Of a stretch of DNA of 64,000 nt, positions 20,543 to 56,400 are shown in pieces. The notes beneath the pieces were generated by a model. The model was not told where the DNA came from, made no database searches, and saw nothing but the letters and a program-made list of their open reading frames with translations. The first letter of the stretch is position 1. The number at the start of each line of letters is the position of its first letter. Source of the stretch: Branchiostoma floridae (lineage: Eukaryota; Chordata; Leptocardii; Amphioxiformes; Branchiostomatidae); the NCBI RefSeq assembly GCF_000003815.2, contig NC_049985.1, positions 14,373,774 through 14,437,773 on the forward strand, given 5' to 3'. Position numbers and translations under genes: made by a program.

Positions 20543-21300
20543 AATTGCCCCTTCGTAAAATTTTAGTTATTCTGTAGGTACACCCGTTGTTCATGTGAAA
20601 TATTCATTATACTTCCGCCAGCAGGTGATAAGGTATTTCCTGGATTAATGAATAAATAAATGAAATGAGATATGACACGAGTATGGCGTGCATGTTGATC
20701 ATGTACAAGCACCATGTATATCCGGGTATCAGTCATGATCCCTTCACGTGAATAGTGGGCGTTACAATTTCCCGATAACTTTAACCAATGCGAACGTTCA
20801 TTTCTACTGTTATATTTGCATAACAATACCTGACTGTCAATCATTTCAACACACATCAAATTCTGTTCAGCGTCTTTATATTTCAGGCAAGCCCCACACA
20901 AACCCCAGTTTCTTCAGAACTCCAAAGCTATCCAGACTGCGGACCGTCATCCCAGACTCCACAGTAGAAAACTCGCCTTAATCGATATCATCCTTACTTC
21001 AGTTTACCACAAGTAAGTTTCAGTTTTGTCGGTTACCGAATTATCTAATTAGTGAAGGCATTTACGTTCTTGCGTATTTTATGTAGAGGGATTAAAACGA
21101 TTTGCCATTTCTACGGTTGGTGCGAGTGGTGCATTTGAGGTACACTATAGTTTTTTTGTCATTCTTTCTTTGACTCGCAAGGACTTATTACTATCTGTCA
21201 GTATGTAACTGTTAATACATAACAGAAGAAAGCGCGTCGCTCAGGTGTACCGTGGTCCGTAACAAACTTTGGTCAGGGTTGCTCTCCCCGCGGTGCCGGT
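20543..21300 (+). promoter_or_regulatory. Promoter plus non-coding first-exon module, copy A
   Basis: The core holds a CCAAT box (TTTAACCAATGCGA, about 20780), an exact octamer ATTTGCAT at 20814-20821, the phrase ACAATACCTGACTGTCAAT, a degenerate TATA position (TTTATATTT, 20875), and an exon ending at the 5' splice site AA/GTAAGT (21012/21013). Copies B (41130-41515) and C (55795-56400) share all of this, and A and C also share several hundred bases of the following intron. The next plus-strand exon is 22683, so the module probably drives the 283-aa protein gene; this is inferred from position. An AATAAATAAATG-ended insertion lies at about 20600-20690. Confidence 0.75.
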
Positions 21301-21314
21301 CAGCCCAATACTTG

Positions 21315-21629
21315 AAATGTACCAGTAATGTAAAGAAAATGAAGCTTATGATTTTTAAGAAAACAGGACGCACATTTAAAAAGTTAAAATTTCTACTCGG
21401 TTCTGAAAATATAGAAATCGCTACTTTATGCTCCTATTTATAACTACCCTCATCGGGCAGCTACTCCCTAGCAAAGAAACAACTCGCTCTGAAAGCGCGC
21501 AAAGCAGTTTTCAGTATCAAATACCTTATCAGCTCGCAGATATCCGTGAAAGCTTTATTATGGATCTTTGATGTTTGCATTAAATCACTTATGCTCTACG
21601 GATGCGAAATCTGGGGGAAAGACTATTGA
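21315..21629 (+). pseudogene. Non-LTR retrotransposon remnant (end of reverse transcriptase domain)
   Basis: One frame encodes NVKKMKLMIFKKTG...LKFLLGSENIEI, then SGSYSLAKKQLALKARKAVF and LYGCEIWG. This series is characteristic of the region following the reverse transcriptase palm in LINE ORF2 proteins. A single in-frame TAA at 21441-21443 interrupts it, and a TGA ends it at 21627-21629. It sits in the first intron downstream of promoter module A, where module C has unrelated sequence, so it inserted after duplication. The catalytic YADD part is absent. Confidence 0.8.
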
Positions 21630-21849
21630 TAATGTCGGCCAAATGTCCGATTGAATCGCTTCTGTAAAAAACATATTACCGATTCTTTTACTAGTAGATG
21701 TCAATTTGAAGACAATGTTACTACTGCTTGCATATAAATGTACCACACAATTGTATGGGATTTGATTTGGACCGTCGGTTTGATTTGGACCGTCGATCGT
21801 CTTCGAGGCTTGTATGTTATTTGATTGCGAAGGAAAGAAATTCAAAGTT

Positions 21850-22590
21850 TTTTAGATGCATTTATAAAAATGTGAATAAAAGAAATACGGGATTTAAAAA
21901 AACAATTATGATGATTGTGAATGACAGAAATGTAGAATTTTTTTCAAATGCAATGATGACTATTCTGAATGAAAGGAAGCGACCATGGAGCAGAGTCAGT
22001 TCTAGTTCAGCTGTCAGGACTGCGTACAACCCTGAGTCACTTGGCTTGCAAGTGCACAACAGATGAAAGGAAGATGCATCTTTGGGCACGATGGACAACC
22101 AAGAATGAAAGAAAGGCGGGATTTTATAAAAATGCAATTATGACGATTGTAATAAAACGAAAGCAGGGAATTTATACAAATGCAATTATGATCATGGTAA
22201 TTAAAAGAGAGGTGGGAATTTACACAAACGCAATTATGATGATTGTGATTAAAAGAAAGGTGGGAATTTATACAAATATGATTATGACAATTGTGATTAA
22301 AAGAAAGATAGGAATTTATACAAATGTAATAATGACGATTGTGATTAAAAGAAAGATAGGAATTTATACAAATGTAATAATGACGATTGTGATTAAAAGA
22401 AAGATAATTTATACAAATGTAATAATGACGATTGTGATTAAAAGAAAGATAATTTATACAAATGTAATAATGACGATTGTGATGAAAAGAAAGTTAATTT
22501 ATGCAAATGTGATTAAAAGAAAGTTATTTTTACAATTACATTTATACAAATGTAATTATGACGATTGTGTTGAAATTAAAGGTGGGAGTT
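21850..22590. repeat. 45-51 bp minisatellite (about 10 units plus degenerate ones)
   Basis: The unit resembles GGAATTTATACAAATGTAAT followed by AATGACGATTGTGATTAAAAGAAAG. The best units lie at 22120-22500, with degenerate units at 21850-21970 separated by unrelated sequence. Unit lengths of 45, 48 or 51 bp keep a plus-strand frame open (repeats of IYTNVIMTIVIKRK), but there is no sign that it is translated. Confidence 0.9.
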
Positions 22591-22682
22591 CTTTGTGAAT
22601 ATTTTCTAGATATTTCCTACAATGAAGAAATTGATTGTTTCTGAGAATTTGGGTAATCCCAGGTTCTCATTTATTATTATAG

Positions 22683-22754
22683 GTCGAGAGAGGTAACATG
22701 GCTGACACGACAGACAACCCACGTCCAACTGCCGACGGCGCCAGCCCCGCGAAG
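22683..22754 (+). repeat. Duplicated first coding exon, copy 1
   Basis: This 72-bp exon has 15 bases of leader and 19 codons beginning ATGGCTGACACG. It has an AG acceptor and a GC donor (AAG/GCAAGT). The copy at 23144-23215 is nearly identical, including flanking intron (for example AATTGTACATTTAGATTTAT), so the duplicated block covers about 22650-22930 and 23100-23370. The exon length is a multiple of three in phase 0, so either or both copies could be used without changing frame. Confidence 0.8.
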
Positions 22755-25700
22755 GCAAGTTCAAATTGTACATTTAGATTTATCATAAAGTGATACGACG
22801 TCGACCAATCAGAACTCACCATTTCATACTGGTTGTGACGCCTTAACATTGTAGAATTACCACAATCGGTGAATACTAATTCTCAAGTGGTGAATGATAA
22901 ATCTCAAGTGGTGAATAATAAAATTTACCAAACAGAATGAGAGCCACACCGGACATTGACCAATCAGGAGAGATACATATGCTGAAGCTTAAGGAATGAG
23001 TAGAGTTAAGGAGGTATTAAAAATATTTGATAGTCCAAGACTGCAATGTTACAAAATATTGTCGGCGGAAATTTTGGTTTCACAATTAAATCTCTGATCT
23101 TATGAGATTTTCTATAACTTCAGGTTCTCATTCATTATTTTAGGTTGAGGGAGGTAACATGGCTGACACGACGGACAACCCACGTCCAACTGCCGACGGC
23201 ACCAACCCCGCGAAGGCAAGCTCAAATTGTACATTTAGATTTATCATTTAAAGTCACCATTTCATATTGGTTGTGACGCCTTATGAGAAGTGCAACAAGT
23301 GGTGAATACTAATTCTCAAGTGGTGAATGATAAATCTCAAGTGGTGAATAATAAAATTGACCAACCAGAATGACAGACACACCAGACATTGGCCAAACAA
23401 AAGAAGAGCTACACAGGGCATTGACTAATCACAAGGAGAGATACATATCAAAGTGAATGAGGAGTTAAGTAGATTTGATCAAGTAATTATTACACTTTAG
23501 GTGTATGTGTACGATCATCGGTGGCCTACATGTATGCTCCGTATGGGGCAAAGGGCCCAGGCAAGTTAAAGTAAGTAAGTAAGTGTATGTGTCGGTTTGT
23601 TTTACAGGATGGACCGGATTTTGAGAAGCCCATGGACCGTGAGTAGTGAAACAGTTTGGCGAGGGGAGGGCCAAGCATATATATACATACTTTCAAGAGC
23701 TAAATTGTTTACTATACTAGACTAGGTTCAGTTGCTTTTAACTTAATGACGGAACAGTAGGCTTATGTTATCTCTGGAGTGACTGGAGGGAAAAGAGAAA
23801 GTACTGTTAGTATAATTGATGAAGTGGCAAAGGGCTGAAGTGGGAAACAGTATTTAAGATGGATTTTTACATGTCATCATTGACTTTGTGTGGAAATGTA
23901 TTCAAATATTCCGCTATTCCTAAAGTGCCACTAATATTCTGATCCTAGTGCTGCATAAAATTTATAGTGTTTGGTATCTTACTTGTACATACATATGTAA
24001 GTTCCGAATGGCTTTCCTCAGTCCAGCCTGGCCCTTTCTTACCCTTGGATAACTAATTGTTCTACATGATGTTGATAGAAATAGTTTTCCTGGTCGCCTA
24101 CATGAAAACGATAGTGTTGTTTTAGGTTTATTTGTTTGTCTGTATTAGTATGTGTACAGGTTTATCACGTTTATCTTTAAAATCTTTTAAAAATGATTGT
24201 TTTTAGTCCCAGAGGGAAAAGCTGAGATGCAAATCCTCAACGAAGTTCTGGAAAAGCTGATTAAAGGAATGACAGAATCAAGGGTAAACTAAACCCAACC
24301 TCTAATTTTTTTCTTATTTATCAATTAAGAGTTATTTTTCTCATGTAGCAAAACAATTGAATGGTCCTGTTGAGACCTCTAAAAGCCTAGGCCTGATCTC
24401 CACCCGGTCTGCCTAAACACCTCAAACGACCTCAACCTTCTGATTTGTTTTCATTTATAAATGCATAAACAATGTATCCAGAGCGCCACACAAGGTTGAT
24501 GCCCCATGTAAACTGCATATTAGATTCGTTTGAGGTCACTTGAGATGTTTAGGCAGACCCATGTCCAACACCGACGATCCTGTTGCTTCATGAATACATA
24601 AATATGCTAACTGTTGGTCAACGTATTCTGTAATTGGGTCCCTTCGTTATGCTCAGACTTCTTGATGTTTATACTATAGTAGTATTAGAAATCAGTGACC
24701 TGGCTTAGACGTGAAAGGCAACAAACTCTGGCAGCTAAGGATCTTCACAGAGGCCTGAATAGTGAGAATTTGTCCCACATAGCCTATGCGATAGCTGTGT
24801 TATCACTATCATAGGCCTCTACATTTATTTGAATTTGCAACTTTTTCGCCTTTAATAGGAAGGAGAAAAAATCACAATAACGGTCCATGACTTCAAACAA
24901 ATCCAGATGAAGTTGAAGTCAGGTAAGAAAGTTTCTGTGCTGGAAGAAATAAAAGCTTTGGACTTCGAGGGACGACTTAGCTTCGATGAGGAAGTCAAAC
25001 TGGAAGTTGACAAGGCATTGAAAAGGTCAGTGCGAAATAAGTAATGTAGAAGGATTGTTATTGTTATTGGGTGGGCCGACTACTCTCTCTTTGCTGCCAG
25101 GGGCTGAATTGCAAGGAGCTTACAATAGGCAGGGCTAAATCGCAAGTGTCTGGAGCGAGCTGCTATTCGGCACTAATTCTGCTGACCTAAATACGACAGT
25201 AATTGCTCCAGGTGCGGCCATGGGACTGTAGGTGTTTGAACCACTCAGACCGGAAAGGACCCTTACTCTTTTCGATAAGTGTGTTGGGTTCTTTAACGTG
25301 CTTTACGTGTGGCTCTCCTCAAACACGGGACCTCCATTCAACGTCCTATCCGAGGGACGAGATCAACTTCTTTCTCTTCCACCCGAATTCATATATCGGG
25401 CGTCCTCTCAGCCTCATTCGAACTTTTTTTAGCAAGTTCTTGTGAATTATGCAAACCATTTATTATTCACTATGTCAACTTTGTCTGTCCTAACTACGAA
25501 AATCCCATCATTGGTATTATATTTTTCATCTCCTGCAGGATACAGCACATTCAAAAGGAACTAGGTGGCATTCGGGGAATGCTAACTTCTATTCAGACGG
25601 TAACATTGTTCTCTTGAATGTTTTAATAAGTTGACATTGAATTAATTTTATGCTTATCAAACCTCTTTAAAAACCGAAAAAATGTGACAGATACATATGT

Positions 25701-28174
25701 GACTTATGTGGAACATCTACAGATCTCAAGTATGCAATTGAGAATTAATTTGCACAATTAACACAAGGGTGTTATCAATCCTTTGTGGTAAATGGTAGAA
25801 ATTACCTACTTGAGATATGTGTAAGTTAGGTTAAGATGTACACCATGATGCATACATTATGCTAATTACAGCCTTAGTGATGAGACAAGATGAAACATTG
25901 CATATTTCAGGGAGATATGAGGTCTCTGAGGTTGTTGATTAAGAAATGGGTATAACGCTGCAATGTTGATGTTAACTAGGATTAACTTGCAACAAATTCC
26001 ATTGCTAACAGAAGGTGATTTGTCTTGCAGAAAGTGGGAACTATCTCAGGTGTGAAGCTGGAAGCCAAACGACTGATGGAATCACTAGAGGAATCTGATT
26101 TGACATATGAGGCAACTGAGGGAAAGGTACGTCAATCACAGTCGACGACTTGTTAAACTTTGATGAGATGACATATATTTTCTGCCAAAGCGGCTCATAT
26201 CTAATGAGCGACAGGCTCAAGTCAGAGACACTGTATGCAAATACATGTACCATGTTCATCATACTAAAAACATTTCAAGCAAACTAAAACGTTTCATGAT
26301 CAGTCATTCATCGTCAACTCATTCGTCAAGACGTATAGGAGCAACAGGGAAACCGGTTTAGAAATTATCGTATGGACAAGGAAGAGTTTTGGCATTAGTC
26401 AGTGAGTGTGTATAAAACACTGTGCCTGGTGTCACCATTTTGAGAACTGGAGATGTTGGTAGATGTGACATCCGAAACATATGGAACGAAGTAGAATATG
26501 ATCCCCTGTATTTACTCATGTTTTCTGATCATATCTTCGCTCTGTTTTCCTCAGGACATCCAAATCATACGAGAGAGCTGTTTGAAATGTATTCCGGACT
26601 TACTCGCCTTCATGAACGAAGTTCGATTGAAACAATTGAAAGTTCAGGCCCTAATGAGGATGCAGTGGCAACAACAAGTAAATCCTCATCCTTATCATTC
26701 GCATACAGTCTTAAAATCAAAAGTCATAATAATTATGGTAATGGTATAGATTTTAGCATAGAAAATATTGTGTTGCGCAGAGCAGGGAAATGAACCGTAT
26801 CACGTCTGTTTTTGTTCACAACACGGGTACATAGCTCAAATATTTAGAGTTAGCTTTTAACCTTAAATGGACACAAGCTATATTTCTCTAAACTATTTGT
26901 CCGCCCTATTTGTCCGACTATTTGGTACCTGCAATTAGCCCTGATTGGCAAGACTTTGCAATAAATGTATTATCATTATTTTCCAACTTTTTGAAAAGCA
27001 AACTTAAACCGACTATCACTCACTAGCACAATGTTAGCCTCTGACAACAAACGAATAGAGACAATGCTGCATTTCTTTCATCATACTCTTGACATGAACT
27101 ATTACAGGTGAGGCAAATCATGGAAATGCACGAGAAGAACATCGTGGAAACAACCGGTCTGTTTATGATGGAGGAAATCCTGCAATACAACAAGTTGTTG
27201 GTCGGGTAAGCAGAATTATCACCTTTCTTAAATGTGCAAATAAAGATAATCATGCAAATCGATAACTTTTAGAGATAATTGAAAATGCCTCTATATAGAT
27301 GAAGATTCACATGCCCATCGTGTATGCATTTCTACCTTTTAACTTATTTCTACGTTTTCCTATGAGAACAAAATTTAATCGGGTCTTCCTGACGGTTCAT
27401 AGATTTTGCTTCCCTTGACTTTTGAAAGCTTCAGTTGTTTTTCTTGCATGGAGACAAAAGACACTAATTTATTTTCATTTAATACATATGAACGACGTAA
27501 GTTAAACATGCTGCAGAACCCGCAGGATAGTTAAGATTATATTTTAGTTAATGCAATTGAAAGTCCGCTAATTAGCATAGACGTCCAAATTGGCTATGAG
27601 ACAAACACTTTTGGAATTAACTTTATTTGAAACACTAAGCATCCCTTCTTTCTTTACAGTATTTTATGGCTTCGTACAGAAACTATCGCAAATTCTTATG
27701 CCAACTTGGCACGAACTTCATTCCATTGTATTTGCCTTATCAATGCTGTTATGATATATACAAGATCTAATGCATATAATTTATCTATTGCAATTCCGAC
27801 TTAAAGCGGTTCCTTTTTGTTTAAGATTTGCGAACGAAAATCCAAGTCACCCGATCAGGAAGGAAACAGCTTCATCAACATCATCGACAACTTCATCAGC
27901 AACAGCTTCATCAACAGCTTCATCAACAACCTCTGTTGCAGTTTCCATTGGTATAAGATTTCACCTTTTTGATTCATGGTGGCAGTTACTGTTACAGTAC
28001 ATTTCTTTTTGAAACAATAAACCAAGTTGGATTAATCTGTGTGCACTTCTAGCAGTGATAATCGAATAATTGGCTGTCGGCAATTCGTGTGATTTAACCA
28101 AGGTACATATTTGGTATTATTACCTAATCTGTTGTTTACATGGCACTCTGATTTCAGCAGAAGAAACCATCTGA
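22698..28174 (+). CDS. Helix-rich protein of unknown family with Ser/Thr-rich tail (283 aa, 10 coding exons)
   Basis: Exons are 22698-22754 (or the duplicate 23159-23215), 23608-23638, 24207-24283, 24859-25025, 25539-25599, 26031-26126, 26555-26677, 27108-27205, 27826-27950 and 28158-28174, with the stop at 28172. All joins keep frame; the first donor is GC, the others GT. The product has no signal peptide or membrane segment. Residues 1-30 are hydrophilic, about 35-235 are charged, leucine-rich amphipathic helices (for example LNEVLEKLIKGM, IQHIQKELGGIRGML, ISGVKLEAKRLMESLEES), and a Ser/Thr/Ala-rich low-complexity tail follows. I do not recognise the family. A helical bundle is likely and a pore-forming or adaptor role is only one speculation. 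The gene lies behind promoter module A, shared with the beta-trefoil genes. The last short exon is the least certain. Confidence 0.78.
23144..23215 (+). repeat. Duplicated first coding exon, copy 2
   Basis: This is the partner of 22683-22754. It encodes the same 19-residue N-terminus with two changes (GTNPAK for GASPAK) and keeps the acceptor, ATG (23159) and GC donor. If spliced after copy 1 the leader reads VEGGN in frame, giving a protein with a repeated N-terminus. Confidence 0.8.
23511..23582 (+). mobile_element. Retroelement 3' fragment with (AAGT)n tail and 10-bp target duplication
   Basis: The 72-bp insertion ends CAAGTTAAAGTAAGTAAGTA and is flanked by exact GTGTATGTGT at 23501-23510 and 23583-23592. 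A short tetranucleotide tail with a target-site duplication is the signature of a 5'-truncated LINE or SINE. It lies 25 bp upstream of the exon at 23608, including much of the region just before its acceptor. Confidence 0.75.
25057..25380. repeat. Dispersed repeat, copy 2 (matches 13395-13725)
   Basis: It shares GGGTGGGCCGA.TACTCTCTCTTTGC, CAGTAATTGC, CATGGGACTG and GTGTGGCTCTCCTCAAACAC in order with the copy in the NUP62 intron. It lies in the intron after exon 24859-25025. Confidence 0.75.
27218..27320. repeat. Short direct repeat, partner of 29411-29510
   Basis: CCTTTCTTAAATGTG.AAATAAAGATAATCATGCAAATCGATAACTTTT, followed by AAAATGCCTCTAT, recurs about 2.2 kb downstream in the same orientation. 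It includes an octamer-like ATGCAAAT. Unclassified. Confidence 0.7.
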
Positions 28175-32076: not shown

Positions 32077-35000
32077 TGCTATCGTGTTACCATAGTCTCT
32101 CTTCTTTATCTTGTCCCTCAGTGCCAGACAATTTCAGGCTACTTTGCTCGTGTGGAATACACTTCAAATGCGCATGCACAGCCTTAAGCATCCGTAATGG
32201 CGAAGATGTGAGATAATCGTCACATCGTAAAAAGGAGCGTTTAAACCACACCTCCTTCGACCTTTCATGCAACCGCATAGTGTTCTGTACAACGTCACCT
32301 ACTACTCTTAATTGAAGTTTGACATACTAACATCCGAGCTAGGGACACGTACCGCGTTTCTATAGTAAGCCATATGCATTATTCAAGAAGGGTACTGCAT
32401 GTGGACATTTAAAGAGACAAACTTGTTTTTTACTTTTTGTCATGACAAGAAAAGCAGGGACTAGACTCTGAAGGTTTCCATGTGTGTAGGATTGAGGAAA
32501 CGGGGTTGTAGATATCGACTACTGGGATAAATCGTACATCTAAATAAATTTGTGCATACTACTTCATGCTCACAGTGTACTTCTCTCGTCATGGTATAGG
32601 TGTGTCAAAACACAGTCAGATCAGACAGAAAATATTGTCGATTTTTATGTTTCGAAATCATTTGGAGAGGCCATTTTTTTCTATTTGCCACGAATGACTG
32701 AAATCAGCTGTTGATACTTTTAAACTAAGGCTAGTCGCCAAGGAAAGCTGAAAGAAGGAAAATAAGCTCAGACTAAAACGAGAGTGGAAAAAAGATTACC
32801 CAGGACAAACCACACAGATTGAAACAGAGTTTTGGTATCAATGAACTTTCCATTTTAAAGCAAGTTCATCAAATTTAATTCTTCCTTTTTCTCACTATTT
32901 TGTACAGCACCGCTGTTGCGAGTCGCTCAAAGCCGCTATCCCAAATACAGAAAATATAGATACTTCCATACATTTAAAAAAAAATTGAGTCATTTGGAGA
33001 CTGTTGGACCTTGTATGGATTTTAGATTTTCTCTCGGATACGATTTTTTGAAGATGAAATATGTGTGGTTAATTAATTGACATGTCCTTAGTATAGTTCA
33101 TTGCCTCTTCGCCTTAATTACATGACGCTACGCGCTTACAGCTGATTGGTTAAAGTTGTATCACATGATCACGTGAAGGATCGCATGATCAGGGTGTGTT
33201 TGCAAATTGACATGTGTCTAGAAAAGCGACCTTATTCGGGAAATATCATACAGTTTTTGAAATTTTCTACTTTCACTTGGACACTAAGAAAAGAACATTT
33301 ATGAAAATGAAAAAAAAAAAACTATACTCAACGCCTCCTGCACAAGTCACCGCTGATTTAGTCTCTTGAAATATGGGGTCTCTTGAAATATGAATTTTCC
33401 ATAGTCTCTCTTCTTTATCTTAATCTTTTTCCTCACTGGTTTCCAAATTTGACAAAGTTCAGGCTACTCAGTTCGTGGAGAATTCACTTCAAATGCGATT
33501 ACACAGCCTTAGGCATCTGTTCATGTGAATACGTGAGGTCATCGTCACAGTGACCACTCAAAATGGAGCGCTTAAGTGTCAAAGTGGTCAAACCAGCTCC
33601 GCAGCTCATGATAATTCAGCGACTACAAACGAACGAAATGGTGGAAGTAATAAGTTATCCACGAAGGTAAGAAGAGCTAGCAGAAGGTACGTTTTTTAAA
33701 AAAATACTCGGCCTTAAATTGGCCGACCTTCCGGATATCCAGATTAGATAATCCGATACTAGTAGAAACGTACACGAGCGACATGATTGACCAACTCGCT
33801 CAGTCTCTCTTCTTAATCTTTGCCTCAGTGCCTCCCACTAGACAAATTACAGGCTACTTTGTTCGTGCAGAATACACTTCAAATGCGCATGTACAGGCTT
33901 AGGCGTCTTTACAAGTGAACACCTGAATAGCACTGTCACAATGGGATAGAAAAAAGGAGGTTTAAACCGCGCCTTCTTTGACCTTTCGCGTAACCGCATG
34001 GTGTACTCGTACAGAACCTTGCGTATCAAACTTTACTGAAGTTTGATACAAGTACCATCCGAAGGAGATATGGAATCGCGCCGCGTTTCTTTCGTGCGGC
34101 TCTGTCCAATCATTTTGTTTGTCTTTTGACCAAACATGTACATGTTCGGTCAAACATGTTCAAGGAAGACATATGGATATTGCCAGAAAACTTGTTTTGT
34201 CATGACAAGTAAAACAGGGACTAGACTTCAAGTGTGTCACACAGTCAGAAGACAGGAAATATTGTCGATTTTTATGGAGAGGTCACTTTTTTTCTATTTG
34301 CTATGAATGGCTTAAATAAGTCGTTGATACTAAGGCTAGTTACCGAGGATAGCTGAAAGAAGAGAAATAAGCTCAGACTTAACCGAGATTGGAAAAAAAG
34401 ATTACCTAGGATAAAAACCACACATACTGAAACTATAGTTTTGGTATCTATGATTTCATTGTAACATCGAATGCAAGCAAGTTACTAGTTATAAATTTCA
34501 ATTCTTCATTTTCGCACTGTTTTGCACAGCACCGATGTTGCAAGTCGCTCAAAGCCGCTATCCAAAATACAGAAAAACATTCTACATTCATACATTTTGA
34601 AAAATTAGAGTCATTTGGGGATTGGAGGACTTGGAATGGATTTTAGTAGATTTTTTCCCGAATAAGACTTTGTGAAGACGAGATTTCTGTGGGGTTCATT
34701 GTCCCTTAGTAAAGTTCATTGCGTCTTTTTCTTAATTACATGACGCTACGCGCCTACACTGATTGGTTAAAGTTGTATCACATGTTCACGTGAAGGATCG
34801 CATGATCAACTTGTGTTTGTACATTGACATGTGTTTAAAAAACGGCCTTTTTAGGAAAATATCGTACGTTTTTCGAAATTTTCTATTTTCACATGGACAC
34901 TAATAAAAAGCAAATTTACCAAAATGGAAAAAAAATACACTCAACGCGTCCTGCCGCTGATTTAGTCTCCTGAGATATTTTCCGTTTTTCTATAGTCTCT

Positions 35001-36633
35001 CTTCTTTATCTTGTCCCTCAGTGATTCCCAAACTGACAAAGTTCAGGCTTGTTGGTTCGTACAGAATACACTTTAAATGCGCTTGCACAGCTTTAGGCAT
35101 CTGTTCATGTGAATACGTGAGGTCATCGTCACAGTGGCCACACAAAATGGAGCGCTTAAGTGTCAAAGTGGTCAAACCAGCTCCACCGCTCATGATAATT
35201 CAGCGACTACAAACGAACGAAACTGGTGGAAGTAATAAGTTGTCCACGAAGGTAAGAAGACCTGGCAGAAGGTACGTTTTTTTAAAAATACTCGGCCTTA
35301 AATTGGCCGACCTTCCCGATATCCAGATTAGATAATCCGATACTAGTTGAAAACTTTAAACAAGCAACATCATTGACCAACTCGTTCAGTCTCTCCTCGG
35401 TCTCTTCTGCATCAGTGCCTTCCACTAGACAAATTACAGGCTACTTTGTTCGTGCAGAATACACTTCAATTGCGTCTTTACGAGTGAACACCTGAATAGC
35501 ACTGTCACAATGGCATAGCAAAAATGAGGGTTTAAACCGCACCTTATTTAACCTTTCATATAACCGTATGGTGTACAGAACCTCACGTATTAAACTTTAC
35601 TAAAATGTGACACAAGTACCACTCGAAGGACAGAAAATATTGTCGATTTTCATGTTTCGAAACCATTTGGTGAGGCCATTTTTTCTCTTCGCTATGAATG
35701 GCTGAAATAAGGCTAGTTGAAAGAAGAAAAATAAGCTTAGACTTACCTTAGAGTGAAAAAAAAAATTACCCAGGATGAAAACCACACAGATTGAAACAAT
35801 AGTTTTGGTATCAATGATTTCATTGTAACATCGAATGCACGCAAGTTATTGCTAGTTATAAAATTCAATTCTTCATTTTTCTCACGCACTGTTTTGCACA
35901 GCACCGCTGTTGCAACTCGCTCAAAGACGCTATCCCAACTACAGAAAATATTCTACTTCCATACATTTAAAATGAGTCATTTGGGGATTGGAGGACTTGG
36001 AATGGATTTTAGTAGATTTTCTCACGGAAAAGACATTGTGAAGCCGAGATTTCTGTGGGGTTCATTGTCCCTTAGTAAAGTTCATTACGTCTTTGTCTTA
36101 ATTACATGACGCTACGCGCATATAGCTGATTGGTTCAAGTTGTATCACATGATCACGTGAAGGATCGCATGATCAGGGTGTGTTTGCAGATTGACATGTG
36201 TCTAAAAAAGCGACCTTATCTATTTGGGAAATATCATACAGTTTTTGAAATTTTCTACTTTCACTTGGACACTAAGAAAAGAACATTTATGAAAATGAAA
36301 AAAAAAAGTACACTCAACGCCTCCTGCATAAGTTGCCGCTGATTTAGTCTACTGAAACATTGATGGGATTTTCCGTGTTTTCATAGTCTCTCTTCTTTAT
36401 CTTGTCCCACAGTGGTTCCAAATTGACAAAGTTCAGACTACTTGGCTCGTGCAGAATACACTTCAAATGCGCATTCACATTTAGGCGTCTGTACAGGTGA
36501 ATACGTGAGGTCATCGGCACAGTGACCACGCAAAATGGAGCGCTTAAGTGTCAAAGTGGTCAAACCAGCTCCACCGCTCATGATAATTCAACGACTACAA
36601 ACGAACGAAACTGGTGGAAGTAATAAGTTGCCC

Positions 36634-36712
36634 TTTGTAATAGCCATAGGCTAGTTGGGCAGCCCTGGCTGTGTGTTCGGTGCAGCCAAACCAATAAATA
36701 AATAAATAAAAA
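36634..36712 (+). mobile_element. 5'-truncated retroelement tail with (AATA)n end and 12-bp target duplication
   Basis: The 79-bp insert ends AATAAATAAATAAATAAAAA and is flanked by AATAAGTTGCCC at 36622-36633 and 36713-36724. Sister array units at about 33650 and 35235 show the uninterrupted site (TAATAAGTTGTCCACGAAGG), so this is a clean insertion into one unit after the array was amplified. Confidence 0.85.
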
Positions 36713-37877: not shown

Positions 37878-38100
37878 TTCTGAGGTATGCACACTTCAGA
37901 CATCTAGGTGTCCAATACATCATTCGATTACAATGCATTCGAAGACAACAAGGCCAAACGTTTTCAGTATCTTTTTCGGGACAGGCAGCTCGTCGTGGGA
38001 CGAACACACCGTCACATTCATTGCCAGATTTGTAGATCATAATTACACAAGCTCACGCCACAAGACGAACATGATTCAACAGCAATCTTGAATTTCTATT

Positions 38101-41129: not shown

Positions 41130-41515
41130 CTAATGATACTTTGATGACAGATACATACATGGTGCACAAGTTGATCATGCACTACTACCATCCATGAACA
41201 TGCGTCAGCCATGATCTTGTCGCGTGAACAGGGGGCGTACCTATAACTTTCTGACAGCTTTAACCAATGCGAGTGTTCATTTCTCCTGATGTATTTGCAT
41301 TACAATACCTGACTGTCAATCATATCTAACTGTCAAACACACCAAATTCTGTTCAGCGGCTATAAATTTCGGGCAAGACCCGCACAAACCCCAGTTTCTC
41401 CGGAACTCCGAAGCTATCCAGACTGCGGACCGTCATCCCAGCGGACAACCTCAGCGCCTTACTTCAGTTGACCAGAACTTGTAAGTTTGTCCTTGTCAGT
41501 TACCGATTAGATTAA
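41130..41515 (+). promoter_or_regulatory. Promoter plus non-coding first-exon module, copy B
   Basis: CCAAT (TTTAACCAATGCGA, about 41258), octamer ATTTGCAT at 41293-41300, ACAATACCTGACTGTCAAT, and a good TATA box TATAAATTT at 41361 are followed at about +30 by CCCCAGTTTCTCCGGAACTC. The first exon ends at CTT/GTAAGT (41480/41481). This is the copy with the best TATA box and is taken to drive the beta-trefoil gene at 44782-48050. The transcription start near 41390 is inferred from TATA spacing. Confidence 0.78.
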
Positions 41516-41929
41516 ACAAGTTTTTGTTGCGTTCTTAGCTTATTCTGGGTTTGGGCACAGTCAGGGATTTAAATGATGATTGCGAGTGATACATTTGATC
41601 TGAAAAAGACTTTTAATCTTGGACGTGCGAAGACTGATCACCACCATGTCATTTCTTTGTCAGTATGTCGCATGTAATCAAGTGTCCCTCGATTGTCAGA
41701 CGGTACAATCCCGGTGCCGTGGTCCCCAAACAGACCTGGTCGTGGACCGCGATCTACAATGGACCAGGACCCGAAATTGACGTTTTTTGTACCAATGAGA
41801 GAGACCAGAGCTACCATGGATTTTTTTAAATATGTAATAACCAAGTTAATTTTGAAAAAAATTCCATGGTAGCTCTATCTGGTCCCTCTCGGTGGTACAA
41901 AAACGGCCATGGACTATGCCTCACTTGAA

Positions 41930-44319: not shown

Positions 44320-44781
44320 GAGCACCATATACACTGAGAAATTGGCGGGTCATCAACGATATTATCATATAGACTATCCAGATTGACTGACCCTGCTTGC
44401 ACCGCTTTGCCCAATTGTCTCTGGTTAAGCTTTTCAGATTCCCGCCCGTCAGCCGCTTGATGTTGCTTCCGGGTGTTTTCCCGTGACTCCGAAAATAAGT
44501 CTTAATCAAAGACCCTTCATCCTTGGTGCATATCTGATCTTGTGATCCAGCCCTCTTCAAAGATGGGCAATGGGGCATATGTTTTGCTCCTTTTGATTAG
44601 TCAATGATCTAAATAACTCTTATTCCGATTTACCAGTTCCCTGTGTATCGCTCCTTCTGATTGAGTGGGGCGGTTATACTTTGATGAACCGCTTAAGAAG
44701 TTAACTCAAATTTCGTCTGGTGATTGACACCACTTTTTGTGTTTCTTTTTCATCTAGAAAACGAAGCGTCCCAATCCAGAA

Positions 44782-47700
44782 ATGGCGGCACACCACTATA
44801 AGGTACGTTATTCTTTGTTTTATTTTGTATTCTCATGCATTCCTCATTTATACCTCCCTTAAGTTATTTAACTTTTTTTACAACATTCACGCTTGTAGTG
44901 ATCTTGCATTACACGTCTGAAACATCTGACCGTTTCCAAAATCACATCTAGTTGCTTGAGTAACTGCTTCTTGGCGTAACTTATATTACAGTTTGTCAGA
45001 ACTTACGTCTGATCTCTGAAAAGTTTATTTTTCTTTGTAACATAATTAATGTTAATCATAATTACCTCCATGATAAAGGGAGGTATAGTTTTTGGTGTGT
45101 CTGTGTTTCCAGATATCGATATTTGTGGTCAGATGATATTTTTGTGTGGGTAGGGGTTGGGAAGACAAAGGTCAAGGTCAATTTTGGGTCCCTGGTATGT
45201 GACCTTGGTACTGCAGCAAAACTGGAAATGTAGCGGCATTTTTGGTCGAAATCTCCCAAGGAGCATAACGGAACATAGGATAGATGGATTTCCATGATAT
45301 TTAGTATCCAGGTATCTTTGGCAGAGATGTACACAATGAAGTGTAAATTATACAAATTTGGACTTAATTTACTTAAAGGAAAATTTATATTTATAGTGAT
45401 TTCCATTATATGACTCATACGCAGTTTGTGGCAGGTGGAAGATAAGCAGCTACCAATTATGCTAATAAGTCTCTAATTTGCATAATCAATGCGAAAGTGT
45501 TCTAATTCATGTAGTAAATGATTGGATTGTCAATATTGTGACCTGTATAAGTCAGTTAAACTTGTATATATCCAAGCATAAATTATGCAGTTGTGAGAGT
45601 CATTTGCATAACTAAAATATTTCATGGAGATTTGAGGTCTCCGAACTCTTGATTTGTAATTTGTAATTCATTTGTTGATGGTCTCCAGCCATCAGTATTG
45701 GCCCATTTGATATTTTCATCTGCAGAGAATCATAGAGTCAAAGATCATACAGTCCAATATTAGGACTTCGAACAATTTCCTTTGCACATTATCTTGGACC
45801 TTTTAGAAGTCATGATAGTAGCTGTTTCATATCATTACTTGGAGAACTGATATCATTTTGCCCTGAGAATTATTTCAAGAGGACTGTGTAAAACTAGTAT
45901 GTGCATACACTAATGTTGCAATTTCTTCTGATTGTCACTCACATGCTGCATTGTGAATACCGCTACATGAATTAACACGTTCACTATTCACCAGTACATC
46001 GTGAGCCAGGACCATCCTCTTGTCATGACCCTCAAACATTTCAGCAACGACGACAACACTCAAATCGTTGTCATGGGTAAACAAGCGCACAATAAGGACT
46101 ACCAACTGTGGTACCATAAGGTAATGATGGCGTGTAGGCCTAATATAATTGTGTACAAAAAACGCCATTCAGAATGCGTGGATTTGCAGGGCTCTCATCC
46201 GGGCAAATGTGTCCTTTATTTTCACAAAAATGTAATCTTGATGCACGGGACGGCATGATGTCTGACACAAGTGTGTGAATCAGTAAGCAAACGGGATCAC
46301 ATGATTTAAGTGATCCAAATGTATGCGCATGTGCAGATTTATGTGGGCTTATGGAATGACCATTTTACTCATTACCTGTGCGTTGACATTGAGCAGAAAA
46401 CTGGTTAAGTGGTGAAAAGTAATATATTCAGTCCCTGTATCTTGTAGTTGCTGAAGTATGCGGTATAGTAATTTGAATTCACCATATGACATTGGTTAAT
46501 GTAACTATCATACAATGTATGTACACTAGTAGCTTCACTCTCAGAATTTCCTTCAGATAAACTTCTGGTTCAATCATGTATGACTTCTCTATCTATACCT
46601 GATGATATGTTTTTCAATCCATTAGGATGACAGCTATATAATAGCTATGGCTACTGCAGACAACAGAGCAGTAACTAACGAAGTGACGACACCAGCAAAT
46701 GGTAATCGGTAAGTTTCATTCCATGAACCTGAATCAATATTTAGTTTATAACAGCTTCTTGCCCGAATGCAAGCTGCATGAAACTGAAAAAAGACAAAAA
46801 ACTATTGAGAGAAATATATGAAATTGTGACTACTCTAGTCTAAATGTTAACTTATCGAGTTTGAGTTAGAATAATAACAGTTTGCTGCATTTAGCAACAG
46901 TCATTTTTTTAGAATGGTAGTTAATTAAGTTATTTTTTGTAAAAAGCATTCCAAGTCACTGTGAGGGTTTTTGAATACTATCTATAACAATTTTGAATTA
47001 TAAAAGAATATCTAAGCCCGAATAATTCTTAAACAAGCTTTTCAGAATTCTTTAAGATAAATATTTCGGAAACATTCTGACTGAAAGTGACCATACAAAA
47101 ATTTCAAATAGATATGTGATTCTTTCACTTCACTTCTAGAAACATTTACAAATATCTGTAATATTTCCAAACGATAGATTTGGATGATTGCCCCATAAAA
47201 GCCCTATTGTTTGTCTCTGCATATTCTACATTTTTTTGTAACTACTGGGTACTTTGTGGCGAGCAATCGACATTCAACTGTACTTCCCTATACATTGAAC
47301 GTGTGAATTGCTTTCTGTCCAGTTCACTGATTATCACATAGTGTTACAAAATGTAGAATATGATAAATAATGGTAGAATGTTGTTACCATCATTTAGAAA
47401 CTATTGGAAGTATCCCATTTGACATCATTAACATTTCCGAAGAAAGTTTTACATTGACGAGGGGATATTTAGAAAGTTGAAATAACATTCAAGTATAGAA
47501 TCTCTTAGACATATCATTACAATGAATTTAAACATTTGTCAATGATGACAATTAGTTGAAATGGATTTTACTGAAGTGTGAAAATGATTTTCCCCTAACA
47601 ACAGTAATTTCGTCATAGCTAGGTGCTTGTTCAATGTATAATTTGATTTGGAGGAAACTATTTGCAACTGTCACGGAACCTGGCATTTCTTAACATCAAT

Positions 47701-48050
47701 TAATTCGGAATCATGCACGCAAAATGTTTTGGATAGATGAAGTCACAGATAAATGGATAGGTAACGAGAAAGTGATTGTTGACAAAATGAAGAGGAGTCA
47801 TTGAACTGTTTTTTTTGCCGTTTCATTTCCTAGTATCTTCAATAGGACGAAGACTGGTGCTCAGAATCAGAAGTGGAACATCGTGCCCACCGACGCGGGA
47901 GCGGTGTACATTACCCCAGAGCTGGATAATAATTTGGCCCTGACACTGAAGGACGGCAACCCGCAGGAAGGGACTGAAGTGATTCTGACACCAATTCTAG
48001 ATAGTGGAATCCCTACTGGAAGTCAACTGTGGAAATTTGATCACAAGTAA
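44782..48050 (+). CDS. Small ricin-type beta-trefoil (QxW) lectin-like protein, complete (148 aa)
   Basis: Coding exons are 44782-44802, 45995-46120, 46626-46708 and 47834-48050, all with AG/GT sites and in frame; the exon with the ATG begins at 44758. Three QxW motifs, QLW at residues 44-46, QKW at 89-91 and QLW at 141-143, are spaced by about 45-52 residues, as in the three lobes of a ricin-B-type beta-trefoil. There is no signal peptide, so the protein is predicted to be cytosolic or unconventionally secreted. It consists of the trefoil alone with no catalytic chain. The expected role is carbohydrate or ligand binding; the ligand is unknown. Promoter module B lies 3.3 kb upstream. A paralogue with identical exon 3 length and intron phases begins at 61764. 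Confidence 0.88.

Positions 48051-51153: not shown

Positions 51154-51155
<2 letters not shown>

Positions 51156-51238
<83 letters not shown>
51156..51238. repeat. (TA)n microsatellite, about 40 units
   Basis: This is an uninterrupted TATA tract. It creates artefactual open frames of alternating Ile and Tyr. Confidence 0.97.
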
Positions 51239-51239
<1 letters not shown>

Positions 51240-51241
<2 letters not shown>

Positions 51242-52420: not shown

Positions 52421-52421
52421 G

Positions 52422-52563: not shown

Positions 52564-53439
52564 AATGAGGAAAGTTCAGACATCCACTGAGTTTCATGAT
52601 AGGACTTTCAAACTTGTCACATATGTAGCTGAGAAAGTGAAATGTCCAATACATATCAATTATGCAAATGACGACCTCATTTACATAATTAATGAGAAAA
52701 CATGAACATGTTGACGGATCATCATGATTTTTGGTATGTAGATATCCTAAGTGAAGACTTACATAGAAGGATACTTATGCAAATTAACAGTAAATTTGTC
52801 ACATATGTAACTGAGAAAGAAAGAAATGTCAATACATGTTAATTATGCAAATGACAACCTAATTTGTATAATTGATGAGAAAATATTAATATGTTGACCA
52901 ATTGTCATAATTTTTGTTATGTAGATAGCCTAAGTGATGACATACATGAAGCAAACCATTAGTTAATTTTCATAATTAATGACGGATGTTTATAAATCCA
53001 CTGCAGTGCATGATAGGACTTTCAAACTTGTCACATATGTAACTGACAAAGAGAGAAATGTCAAAAGACACTTGGCCAAAGCCCCCCTATTGTTTGGCCT
53101 GGCCGGAGTCTGGTAGTGACTACATGATTTGACATTGTCAACTTTGCCAAGAAGTTTATGTTATTGGTAGCGTTTGTGGGTTTGTGGGAACACACGTTCA
53201 TGCATGCAGTCGTTTGCTATTGGAGTAGGTACTCTTTAGTAATACATGAATAAGACCTTAAAGTCTTGAATAAAGGCATGATTATTTGGCGAAGGGATGT
53301 GTTCGTGGAACTCTAGTTGAAGATATGAAATGTGAAATTTGCCTTAACACTGTACTGACTCAAGTCAGCGCAGGAGAAGTTAATCAAAATGAAAAAAAAA
53401 TACACTGACTTCAACTTGAATTTTCTGAAACTGATCTTT

Positions 53440-53660
53440 CTGTGGAGTCCATAGTTCAATATATGAAGCTACATGTATAAATCTGATTGGTTAACACACA
53501 GACGTTTACGTGAAGATTCAAGATACTTTTCCTGCTTAAGGTGTTTCTAAAGCTGAGTTGCAAGTGGGATTGATTGTCCTTTCATAAAATCTTAGTCATA
53601 CTGAAGGCACGCCCAACGACTGCTGTACACAAGTTGATCATGCACCAGTATTTCAAAAAT
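53440..53660 (+). promoter_or_regulatory. Partial copy (D) of the promoter-module upstream part
   Basis: CTGATTGGTTAACACACAGACG resembles the CCAAT core of the tandem array. AAGCTGAGTTGCAAGTGGGA, CATAAAATCTTAGTCATACT and GTACACAAGTTGATCATGCACC match the upstream part of modules A-C. The octamer, TATA and exon 1 parts are missing, so the copy is truncated. Confidence 0.65.
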
Positions 53661-54850
53661 GATCAGTTACATGTTGCTATTGCAGCTTACCTTTGCCAAT
53701 TCTGTTGTGTAACTATTTTTTGTCTCTCTAGCCCTGCTAAAACGAAACGTCGCAATCGTAACACAACACGGAATTGCACGGAGAATGTTCGCGCGGTTTG
53801 AATTGGGTTCCATAATACCACCAGGAACAATATTAACTTGACGTTATGTACCTATAAACATCCACTGTTGCTACTTAATTTCCTGTTGATAATTGTACAA
53901 AAGAACATAAACTGTACGGTGCAAAAGGCATAAGAAACGGACATATACTGTCAAGAATTTTAACTTTGGCCCGTCACAACGCTATGACGTAAACTTTACC
54001 GCTGGCGTTGAAATAAAAATAGCGGGGAAAACATGGCGGCGTTTCTATTTTGCCCATTCAACTGTAAATTCAGGTTATTATGCAACAGTTCTTGGCACTT
54101 CGACAAGAGTTTTAGGTCACCAACCAAACAGAAATTTAAGATTACTGCTCGTCTTGTGCCGTGAACACGAGTGATTATTATCTACAAATCCGGAGATAAA
54201 CATAACGATATGTTCTTCCCACTACGCGCTCGCCTGCCCCGATAAGGAACTGAAAACTTTTGACCTTGTTGTCTTCGAACACATCAGTATAGAATCCTTT
54301 TTGAAAATGTGTCAAACACCTGGATGTTTAAAGTGTGCATGCCTCGAAAATTACTGTTGCTGCACAAGTATATATCATTACATTCATCGCTTATATCATA
54401 AGGCGGTATCATGATTAATCGCGGTATTATGGTAATGGGTGTTATAATTCACTTTCATGACAGTTGTTATGACGACGTTCAAAAATGAATCTAGTACAAT
54501 GGTGTTTGTAAGGTGTTGCCGCATGTAAAGGAATTTTTTGAGGACTCAGCGCAGGAGAAGTTAATCAAAACAAAACAAAAAATACACTAATGTGGATTCA
54601 ACTTACTTGAGAACTTTTGAAGCTGATCTTTCTGTGGGTCTCATTGTCTCTTAGTCAAGTTCATCGCCACTTCGCCTTAATTATATGAAGCTACGCGTAT
54701 TTATATATAAAGCTGATCAGTTAAAGATATAAGCACACAAAACTTTCACGTGAATTAACCATTATGATACTTTCACAGTACATGAACGTGGTATATGATT
54801 AAGTTTGTAGAGTCTGGAGAAGCTGCCTGTTTCTGGAAATAGAAATTGTC
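53661..54850. other. Upstream region of the second beta-trefoil locus, no gene recognised
   Basis: It contains array-like text at 54600-54760 (TGATCTTTCTGTGGGTCTCATTGTC, CTACGCGTATTTATATATAAAGCTGATCAGTTAAAG, TTTCACGTGAA), a diverged copy of the CCAAT/E-box unit. Short open frames are not supported. Confidence 0.45.
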
Positions 54851-54856
54851 TGAATG

Positions 54857-55560
54857 TCTTCAGTTCGAAAAGAAAAGCAGTGCGTCCTTGGTTAGGGTCA
54901 TACAAGTCAAGGTTCCGTCGCCTTGAGTACTTGTTTTGACAGTTGTTATGACGACGTTCAAAAATCACTCGAAAAGTTGGAGAGTACAATAGTGTTTGTA
55001 AGGTGTTGCAGATCTTACAACAGATATGGATAACTGCTATAGACATCATAAAATATGTATAAGTTTCTTTCATGTGTAACCGTTATGAGTCACTTTCATG
55101 ACAGTTATGACGAAGTTAAAAAATGAGTCGAACACAGTGTAGGTGTTGCCGCAGATCTTCCAACAGATATGGATACATACTATAGCCATAATAAAATATG
55201 TATAATTCTCTTTCATGTTTCTCCATTTTATCACTTTTCTCGCCCCGCGGCAACGCCTTTCGCTTCTTTTGTTGGAACAACATTTTTCTCCAAGCCCCAA
55301 ACTACAAACAATGTATACAAATGTGAATGTAAAGGTAAATCGGGTGACCCCAGGCTCAGGACATGACATGACTTGTCATTTCTGCATGAGCGGGTAGTTG
55401 AATGTGGCTTTGCTGAGGCTTTCATATGTCAGGCAAGCACAAGCAACATGGAAGAATAGGCCACTCGTCCGCAGACCGGCTTCCAGTCTGAGACTAAAAC
55501 TTTGCGCCGCGCGCGGGAAGACTTCGCCGCCTTTGCGCCGCTCACGATCGACCACAATCC
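54857..55560. repeat. Segmental duplication, copy 1 (partner 57498-58212)
   Basis: ATGTCTTCAGTTCGAAAAGA through CAACAGATATGGATA and the CGTCCGCAGACCGGCT block recur about 2.64 kb downstream in order and orientation. The copies flank promoter module C. No coding frame is conserved. Confidence 0.85.
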
Positions 55561-55794
55561 GTATAAAGCTGATCATTTGAAAACTTTCACATGAAGGAAC
55601 CATTATGATACTTTCACAGTACATGAACGTGGTATATGATTAAGTTTTGTAGATTGGCATAAGTTTGGAGAAACTGCCTGTTTCTGGAAATAACAGTACG
55701 TTCTCGAATTCTTTTTACCTTTACAGGGACCCTAAGCAGAAGATGACTAAAATAATTATATTTCAATGCGTTTCTGAAGCTGAGCTTCAAGTAG

Positions 55795-56400
55795 GGTTCA
55801 TTGCCCTTTCGTAAAATCTTAGTCATACTGTAGGCACACCCAACAATTGCGGTAAACAAGTTAGTCATGCACCATCACTACCGTATCCATGTATGAATCA
55901 TGATTTCTTCACGTGAATGGTAGGAGTTACAATTTTATGCAAGCTTTGATCAATGCGAGGGTTCATTTCTCCTGATGTATTTGCATAACAATACCTGATT
56001 GTCATTAATTTCAAACACATCAAATTCTGTTCAGCGGCTTTAAGTTTCGGGCAAAACCGCCCAAACCCCAGTTTCTCCGGAACTCCGAAGCTATCCAGAC
56101 TGCGGACCCGAGTCTCCACAGCATAAAACTCAGCGCCACCCTGGTCGACATCATCCTCACTTCGGTTTACCAGAATTTGTAAGTTTCATTTGTGTCACAG
56201 TTGCCGAATGATTTAATTAATGGAAACGTTTTGCCATCACTACTGCGGCTTGTTCCAGGGATGCATTTGAGGTGCAAAGTAGTTTCTGTCATTCTTCCTT
56301 TGACTTGCGAGGACTTACTAGTGACTGTCAATATGTAATATGTAGCAGAAAAAAACGTCGCTCGAGCGGTACCGCTGTCCGTAAGAAACTTTGGTCAGGG
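55795..56400 (+). promoter_or_regulatory. Promoter plus non-coding first-exon module, copy C
   Basis: It contains TTTGATCAATGCGA (a weakened CCAAT), octamer ATTTGCAT at 55979-55986, ACAATACCTGATTGTC, a poor TATA position (CTTTAAGTTT, 56038), CCCCAGTTTCTCCGGAACTC and a first exon ending at TTT/GTAAGT (56178/56179). It is taken to drive the second beta-trefoil gene, whose coding exons start at 61764. The following intron matches that of copy A up to about 56400. Confidence 0.75.

What the first reader, a model, noticed from the sequence alone, without database searches (positions are those of the whole stretch)
20543..56400. One promoter plus first-exon cassette stands in front of two unrelated gene families
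Modules at 20543-21300, 41130-41515 and 55795-56400 share CCAAT, an exact ATTTGCAT octamer, ACAATACCTGA, the TATA position, a non-coding exon and its 5' splice site. Two copies precede related beta-trefoil genes; one precedes a helical-protein gene with no visible similarity to them. A partial fourth copy lies at 53440-53660. The shared sequence is directly seen; shared regulation of different effectors through a transplanted promoter is inference. This is the best candidate in the window for an undescribed co-regulated gene system.
Basis: partly seen in the sequence, partly recalled or inferred. Interest (0 to 1): 0.75.

Follow-up and report, generated by a model that had tools for sequence, protein, structure and literature searches.

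The report
Shared promoter before unrelated animal genes
Three genes in this stretch of an animal genome, two related lectins and one unrelated helical protein, appear to start with the same conserved promoter and non-coding first exon, which suggests that one gene took over its neighbours' switch.

Summary
Three modules (about 20541-21296, 41130-41745, 55797-56404) are homologous. The best-conserved segment of their alignment is 20779-21020: 173 of 208 columns identical in all three, 152 of 299 outside; 0 of 2000 shuffles scored as high. It runs from six bases before CCAAT to the end of the GTAAGTTT donor motif, so promoter plus exon 1 is the conserved unit, also before the helical gene. The octamer is half of a SOX-OCT composite: of 23 octamers in the window, only these 3 adjoin a SOX half-site. 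Corrections: CCAAT is in 2 of 3, TATAAA in 1 of 3, and the 'fourth copy' is upstream flank only. Downstream lie two R-type lectins and an unrelated 283-aa protein, mostly helical by a crude count. Best reading: the helical gene captured a lectin-type promoter and non-coding first exon, a known kind of event. No transcript was seen; joint expression is inference. The lectin genes are duplicates, so the module reached an unrelated gene once. Genome-wide copy number is untested: the genome search did not complete in 15 of 15 tries.

The parts
20541..21296 (+). Module 1 (M1): promoter, non-coding exon 1 and start of intron 1, before the helical gene; about 20587-20673 is a stretch that M2 and M3 lack
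   Evidence: blastn to 21282 and three-way alignment
20779..21020 (+). Most conserved segment: from six bases before CCAAT to the last base of GTAAGTTT
   Evidence: maximal-scoring segment, 173 of 208 vs 152 of 299 columns, 0 of 2000 shuffles
20814..20828 (-). SOX-OCT composite TATTGTTATGCAAAT, 14 of 15 to CATTGTTATGCAAAT
   Evidence: motif from passages of PMC4576985
20834..20843 (-). PBX-PREP decamer TGATTGACAG (exact)
   Evidence: motif from passages of PMC6023610
20907..21012 (+). Predicted non-coding exon 1 of the helical gene (initiator CCAGTTT, donor CAA|GTAAGTT)
   Evidence: prediction only
22683..28174 (+). Helical gene H: exons 22683-22754, 23608-23638, 24207-24283, 24859-25025, 25539-25599, 26031-26126, 26555-26677, 27108-27205, 27826-27950, 28158-28174; 283 aa
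   Evidence: open frame across 9 junctions, 8 GT-AG and 1 GC-AG; prediction by eye, no transcript
41130..41745 (+). Module 2 (M2), before lectin gene L2
   Evidence: blastn to 41506, the rest by alignment
41293..41307 (-). SOX-OCT composite TATTGTAATGCAAAT (13 of 15)
41313..41322 (-). PBX-PREP decamer TGATTGACAG (exact)
41393..41480 (+). Predicted non-coding exon 1 of L2; TATAAA 32 nt upstream of the start
   Evidence: prediction only
44758..48050 (+). Lectin gene L2 (148 aa): exons 44758-44802, 45995-46120, 46626-46708, 47834-48050
   Evidence: Pfam RicinB_lectin_2 E 7.6e-10, above cut-off
55797..56404 (+). Module 3 (M3), before lectin gene L3
55979..55993 (-). SOX-OCT composite TATTGTTATGCAAAT (14 of 15)
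56070..56178 (+). Predicted non-coding exon 1 of L3
   Evidence: prediction only
61743..63054 (+). Lectin gene L3, first exons 61743-61778, 62516-62641, 62975-63054; the rest lies beyond what was read here
   Evidence: 28 of 66 residues identical to L2, E 4e-12
53543..53647 (+). Partial copy: upstream flank only, no promoter core
   Evidence: 85% to 55770-55874

Best explanation
The module is a working RNA polymerase II core promoter plus a non-coding, AUG-free first exon, inherited by two duplicated R-type lectin genes and captured by segmental duplication or recombination in front of an unrelated gene for a helical protein. Transcription would start at the CCAGTTT initiator (A at 20907, 41393, 56070), about 30 bp after the TATA position. 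Exon 1 (88-109 nt) would be spliced by its GTAAGT donor to a second exon that holds the ATG. Shown: homology, the conserved segment from CCAAT to donor, the exact sites, the open spliced frames. Inferred: the transcription start, the splicing across intron 1, control by a POU-SOX pair and (in M1 and M2) PBX-PREP, the direction of capture (from lectin to helical gene), and joint expression of the three genes, perhaps in the early embryo.
For: (1) Conservation is not even along the module. The maximal-scoring three-way segment is 20779-21020, from six bases before CCAAT to the last base of GTAAGTTT (0 of 2000 shuffles as good); pairwise, 0 of 2000 for M1-M2, 0 of 2000 for M2-M3 and 43 of 2000 for M1-M3. 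A dead relic would be expected to decay evenly. (2) The initiator CCAGTTT is identical in 3 of 3 and lies about 30-32 nt from the TATA position; YYANWYY starts at 1% of bases on this strand; the 5' UTR has no ATG in 3 of 3 (distances counted by hand). (3) 3 of 23 octamers in the window adjoin a SOX half-site, and those 3 are the modules. The exact 14-mer ATTGTWATGCAAAT occurs 3 times, only in the modules. Exact TGATTGACAG occurs twice, in M1 and M2. (4) The helical gene has an open 283-aa frame across 9 splice junctions, with an acceptor before its ATG exon; tblastn with L2 and L3 found no lectin exon between M1 and that gene. (5) M1 and M3 are the closest pair in the intron part (153 of 200 columns vs 124 and 119; 1999 of 2000 bootstraps), so M1 nests with a lectin module if rates are even.
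Against: No transcript was seen. M3 lacks CCAAT, a TATA consensus and the decamer, and M2 lacks the E-box and has one more change in the SOX half-site, so if all three work, none of these is essential. M1-M3 alone gives the weakest support for the conserved segment. Other parts of the module do not repeat the M1-M3 link: upstream of the core M1-M2 is nominally closest (66, 64 and 61 of 95 columns; 1285 of 2000 bootstraps) and in the core M2-M3 (1096 of 2000). In the intron the M2 branch is more than twice as long as the others (by hand), and a fast M2 would give the same distances without any nesting. Gene conversion could also make the core more alike than its flanks. The segment method was run with match rates I chose and only on columns from 20683 on. 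Motif reading was after the fact and used factors known from vertebrates; the species is unverified.
Confidence: 0.62

Rival explanations
1. M1 is a leftover of a duplicated lectin locus whose coding part was lost; the helical gene uses its own promoter near exon 2.
For: M1 is separated from exon 2 by 1.67 kb holding a probable LINE remnant (read by eye; Pfam gave only a sub-threshold DUF6451 hit) and a minisatellite at about 22108-22590. Partial duplication is frequent at the lectin loci: 53543-53647 and 54739-54841 repeat upstream flank of M3.
Against: The promoter core, exon 1 and donor of M1 are about as well kept as those of M2 and M3 (184, 182 and 186 of 208 columns), while flanks decayed. 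No lectin exon was found downstream of M1 before 44 kb (no hit with E below 2 there).
Confidence: 0.22
2. The module is a dispersed mobile element or repeat (solo LTR, DNA element) that carries a promoter and happens to lie before these genes.
For: A 64-kb window holds three full copies and a fragment; retrotransposon sequence lies near (RVT_1 in an ORF at 58691-60634, E 1.1e-24). Copy number in the genome is unknown.
Against: Best inverted 20-mers within 30 bases of the assumed ends match at 12-13 of 20; the longest direct repeat around M1 is 5 nt; A[AT]TAAA matches (3 in M1, 1 in M2, 0 in M3) are not at a position shared by the modules. All three full copies lie on the same strand upstream of an ATG exon, but two of them by gene duplication.
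Confidence: 0.1
3. The core was homogenised by gene conversion between neighbours, not kept by selection.
For: The closest pair differs by region: M1-M3 in the intron, M2-M3 (weakly) in the core, M1-M2 (weakly) upstream.
Against: Conversion tracts have no evident reason to begin at the CCAAT box and end at a splice donor motif in all three pairs.
Confidence: 0.06

Closest known systems
REST seminal-vesicle genes of mammals (Svp5, SVP200; PMC7556508, passages seen)
   Same: A new gene made from the promoter and first exon of one gene and the coding part of another; upstream promoter, first exon and start of the intron are homologous to one gene, the coding exon to another.
   Different: There the first exon encodes the signal peptide; here it is non-coding, so only control and UTR are shared.
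Schistosoma japonicum signal-sequence gene family (PMC3434034, abstract and passages seen)
   Same: Several genes with similar core promoter and 5' part, thought to have spread by duplication with repeats nearby.
   Different: There the shared part is dispersed over 34 contigs and includes coding sequence; here three copies within 36 kb and a non-coding exon.
SOX-OCT composite sites of vertebrate pluripotent cells (PMC4576985, PMC8257633, PMC12370185; passages seen)
   Same: Same half-sites in the same order and with no spacer; 14 of 15 bases in M1 and M3, 13 of 15 in M2, against CATTGTTATGCAAAT.
   Different: In the vertebrate work the pair is Sox2 with Oct4. In the passages seen, class III POU factors in neural stem cells preferred another palindrome. 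Which POU factor would act here is unknown.
DECA (PBX-PREP) plus CCAAT (NF-Y) elements of the zebrafish blastula (PMC6023610, passages seen)
   Same: M1 and M2 hold an exact TGATTGACAG 49 bp downstream of a CCAAT (positions).
   Different: M3 holds neither; of seven zebrafish elements tested in HEK293 cells, one drove a reporter.

Membership tests
Promoter plus first-exon capture (as in REST genes) | Homologous promoter and first exon before coding parts that are not homologous | tested here: met
   DNA homology; proteins E 5.2; the exon itself is predicted
Promoter plus first-exon capture (as in REST genes) | Shared first exon appears in mature transcripts of both genes | not testable with these tools
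   no RNA data held
Promoter plus first-exon capture (as in REST genes) | First exon encodes a signal peptide (REST genes proper) | tested here: not met
   no ATG in the predicted 5' UTR, 3 of 3: works like, but is not, a REST gene
SOX-OCT composite element | SOX half-site directly joined to ATGCAAAT | tested here: met
   14, 13 and 14 of 15 bases; 3 of 23 octamers
SOX-OCT composite element | Bound by a SOX-POU pair and active in early embryo | not testable with these tools
   only literature context: a group of amphioxus open-chromatin regions enriched in early motifs such as Oct4, Sox2 and Nanog (figure legend in PMC6292497)
PBX-PREP (DECA) element | TGATTGACAG | tested here: inconclusive
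   exact in M1 and M2, degenerate in M3; with one mismatch not enriched in the window, 10 vs 7.3 expected
R-type (ricin B-like beta-trefoil) lectins | Match to the family profile above its curated cut-off | tested here: met
   L2: RicinB_lectin_2 39.8 bits vs cut-off 25.6; Ricin_B_lectin 23.9 bits, below its cut-off of 29; the L3 part gave no lectin hit but matches L2 at E 4e-12
LTR or DNA transposon | Terminal repeats and target-site duplication | tested here: not met
   inverted ends sought within 30 bases of assumed ends, direct repeats around M1 only
LTR or DNA transposon | Many copies in the genome | not tested
   The genome search did not complete, 15 of 15 tries

The most novel reading that the evidence does not exclude
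The module is a portable start unit: a SOX-POU (and TALE) promoter with an AUG-free exon and a splice donor that can be placed before any gene and bring it under one early programme, and it has built a dispersed set of co-expressed effector genes in this animal, with cargo evolving fast behind a frozen promoter (L2-L3 coding exons 3 and 4: 128 of 203 bases identical; promoter plus exon 1 of M2-M3: 186 of 208).
Probability: 0.12. Interest if true: 0.75.

Novelty: new member of a known kind. Interest (0 to 1): 0.42.

Why it matters
Capture of a promoter together with a non-coding exon is a simple route to a ready-made regulon. My searches for precedents brought two comparable cases to light, REST genes and a Schistosoma family, both of which move coding sequence too. 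Here the footprint of conservation outlines the moved unit from its CCAAT box to its splice donor, which makes the case testable with one transcript experiment. If the species is an amphioxus, it also offers a compact SOX-OCT promoter in an animal outside the vertebrates, where POU5/Oct4 is described (PMC9492771, passages), so it could be asked which POU factor reads the composite site there.

Tried and rejected
Genome-wide copy number: the genome search 'own' was sent in the same form 15 times and never answered. Bacterial relatives of the helical protein: 43 stretches matched one of six peptide patterns, none encoded a relative (such a scan reaches close relatives only). Pfam, NCBIfam and PDB gave no relative of the helical protein above any cut-off; the best weak hits were PSY3 (E 0.0011, 19 bits, cut-off 25), ExtJ (E 0.0084) and the dynamin-1 stalk (E 0.066), which fit a generic helical bundle. 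A pore-forming or toxin-like role was considered and dropped: no profile supports it. RNA families: 0 matches at gathering score in the window. A conserved RNA fold of exon 1: 14 pairs, none with a change on both sides; rejected. Positive selection on the lectins: coding exons 3 and 4 are less alike than intron 3 and the first part of intron 4 (128 of 203 vs 895 of 1164 bases), but the compared ends of intron 2 are at 70 of 131 and 121 of 240, dN 0.43 is below dS 0.60 over 70 codons, and pN exceeded pS in 19% of 2000 bootstraps, so it is not shown. Paper searches: no held paper contains ATTTGCATAACAATA. Listings for amphioxus with promoter, first exon and duplication (15 of 116 shown), amphioxus beta-trefoil lectins (6 of 6; 12 of 38), amphioxus SOX/POU (15 of 106; 12 of 14) and shared promoters (2 of 2) showed nothing that names this locus; of most of these I saw titles and the start of abstracts only.
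Full report
SETTING. The window looks like animal nuclear DNA: spliced genes and assembly gaps (a run of N at 37404-37877). From memory of gene style I take it for an amphioxus (Branchiostoma); no tool confirmed this, and no genome of the species could be searched. Other features: minus-strand ORFs matching Nsp1_C (nucleoporin type, E 1.5e-15) and an ankyrin repeat (E 3.2e-6), and a death-effector-like ORF below its cut-off.

OBSERVATION. blastn of each module against the window gives M1-M3 72% over 579 columns, M1-M2 80% over 287, M2-M3 78% over 296, all with E below 1e-60. In a three-way alignment the octamer and ACAATACCTGA are identical in 3 of 3, and so is GTAAGTTT. CCAAT is in M1 and M2 only; TATAAA is in M2 only. 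The fourth copy has 105 bp of upstream flank and no core. Upstream of M1 (18000-20540) and in the rest of intron 1 (21297-22682) no further similarity to the lectin loci was found (where rows starting in the minisatellite were not printed; one search covers 20000-22700 in full).

CONSERVED UNIT. I asked where along the alignment identity is concentrated, without telling the method the elements. The maximal-scoring segment of columns from 20683 on is 20779-21020 in M1 coordinates: 173 of 208 ungapped columns identical in all three, against 152 of 299 outside; 0 of 2000 column shuffles reached that score. Its right end is the last base of GTAAGTTT, its left end six bases before CCAAT. By pairs the segment is 20779-21020 (M1-M2, 0 of 2000), 20786-21020 (M2-M3, 0 of 2000) and 20796-21022 (M1-M3, 43 of 2000). 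Columns with a gap in any compared row were left out, and the match rates of the score were my choice. Thus promoter, exon 1 and donor form one conserved unit, and M1 is about as intact as the others (184, 182 and 186 of 208 columns for M1-M2, M1-M3 and M2-M3).

ANATOMY. From 5' to 3' in M1: E-box CACGTG 20745 (also in M3, not in M2 at that place), CCAAT 20785, GTTCATTTCT 20796, octamer 20814 with the SOX half-site running to 20828, decamer 20834, TATA position about 20877, initiator CCAGTTT with A at 20907, donor at 21013. Octamer to start is 93, 100 and 91 bp; exon 1 is 106, 88 and 109 nt; the 5' UTR of 121, 112 and 130 nt holds no ATG. On the minus strand the octamer reads TATTGTTATGCAAAT in M1 and M3 and TATTGTAATGCAAAT in M2, 14, 14 and 13 of 15 bases of the Sox/Oct motif CATTGTTATGCAAAT given in PMC4576985 (passages; comparison). 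Of 23 octamers in the window, 3 adjoin a SOX half-site, the three modules. With up to two mismatches the 14-mer ATTGTWATGCAAAT has 7 matches where 2.9 are expected; 2 of 100 shuffles had as many; the 3 perfect ones are the modules and a fourth, at 29952, has one mismatch. TGATTGACAG, the DECA motif of PMC6023610 (passages), is exact in M1 and M2, the only two in the window, and degenerate in M3; with one mismatch it is not enriched (10 vs 7.3 expected, 21 of 100 shuffles as many). These sites were recognised after the fact, so their chance is higher than the bare numbers say.

GENES. H: ten exons from 22683 to 28174 give an open 283-aa frame, 8 junctions GT-AG and 1 GC-AG. It has no Pfam or NCBIfam match above cut-off and no convincing PDB match. 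A crude propensity count% helix, with no hydrophobic N-terminus. L2: 148 aa, RicinB_lectin_2 E 7.6e-10; its best PDB match is ThreeFoil, E 2e-5. L3: 73 residues read in the window, 28 of 66 identical to L2. H and L2 are not detectably related (E 5.2).

HISTORY. L2 and L3 are related genes with the same exon layout as far as read: intron 3 aligns at 264 of 323 bases and about the first 945 bases of intron 4 at 631 of 841, though the compared ends of intron 2 do not (70 of 131 and 121 of 240). So M2 and M3 most simply share the module by gene duplication, and only M1 is a transfer to another gene. In the intron part M1 is closest to M3 (153 of 200 columns, against 124 for M1-M2 and 119 for M2-M3; 1999 of 2000 bootstraps). 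Upstream M1-M2 is nominally closest (1285 of 2000) and in the core M2-M3 (1096 of 2000), both weak. Under even rates the intron nests M1 among lectin modules, hence capture by H; a fast-evolving M2 would imitate this. No mobile-element ends were found. Sequence that I read by eye as the end of a LINE follows M1 directly at about 21320-21630, without a profile match above cut-off; it may have set the right edge of the visible homology.

FUNCTION. I commit to a captured, working promoter (0.62). Control by a SOX-POU pair is plausible but not shown (about 0.45). Early embryonic expression is a guess from two literature facts: a group of amphioxus regulatory regions is enriched in early motifs such as Oct4, Sox2 and Nanog (figure legend in PMC6292497), and DECA with CCAAT is bound in the zebrafish blastula (PMC6023610). 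In the passages of PMC4576985 class III POU factors did not use the Sox/Oct motif in neural stem cells, and POU5 is treated as a vertebrate family in the passages of PMC9492771 that I saw. So the reader of this site in the present animal is an open question.

KNOWN OR NEW. Mergers of an old promoter and first exon with another gene's coding part are described for REST genes (PMC7556508, passages), and spread of a core promoter with a signal sequence for Schistosoma genes (PMC3434034, abstract and passages). The present case is a new member of that kind, with a non-coding exon and an unrelated cargo. Interest is moderate; it would rise if the unit proved dispersed.

Noticed in passing
32106-41071: Diverged repeat units spaced about 1.1-3.2 kb (4-8 copies by family) upstream of M2, with pieces that look related upstream of M3 (53365-53445, 54546-54637). 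By eye three copies hold an ATG stretch reading MERLSVKVVKPAP... followed by a GTAAGAAG donor; one looks frameshifted and one carries an insert of about 90 bp, so they may be relics of a repeated first exon.
   Followed up: partly
22683-22754 and 23144-23215: The ATG exon of the helical gene is tandemly duplicated. Both copies are 72 nt, in frame if both are used, and both end in a rare GC splice donor (GCAAG), which suggests alternative exons.
   Followed up: partly
45995-46120, 46626-46708 vs 62516-62641, 62975-63054: Coding exons of the two lectins are less alike (128 of 203) than intron 3 and part of intron 4 (895 of 1164), but not less than the ends of intron 2; dN/dS is about 0.72, so positive selection is not shown.
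   Followed up: yes
58691-60634: 647-aa reverse-transcriptase open frame (RVT_1, E 1.1e-24) on the minus strand inside the predicted intron 1 of L3.
   Followed up: partly
22108-22590: Minisatellite of 45-48 bp units in the predicted intron 1 of the helical gene.
   Followed up: no
41784-41903: Imperfect palindrome (76% over 129 columns with its own reverse complement) in the predicted intron 1 of L2.
   Followed up: no
6171-6977 and 7655-8206: Two minus-strand ORFs sharing a C-terminus with VKQTTVTDFFRKR, which looks like a PCNA-binding tail (recalled); no Pfam match at E 0.1 for the second ORF or for the part of the first that was scanned, whose first residues were mistyped.
   Followed up: partly
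4015-4443: Minus-strand ORF resembling a death effector domain, E 7.3e-5 but below Pfam's cut-off.
   Followed up: partly
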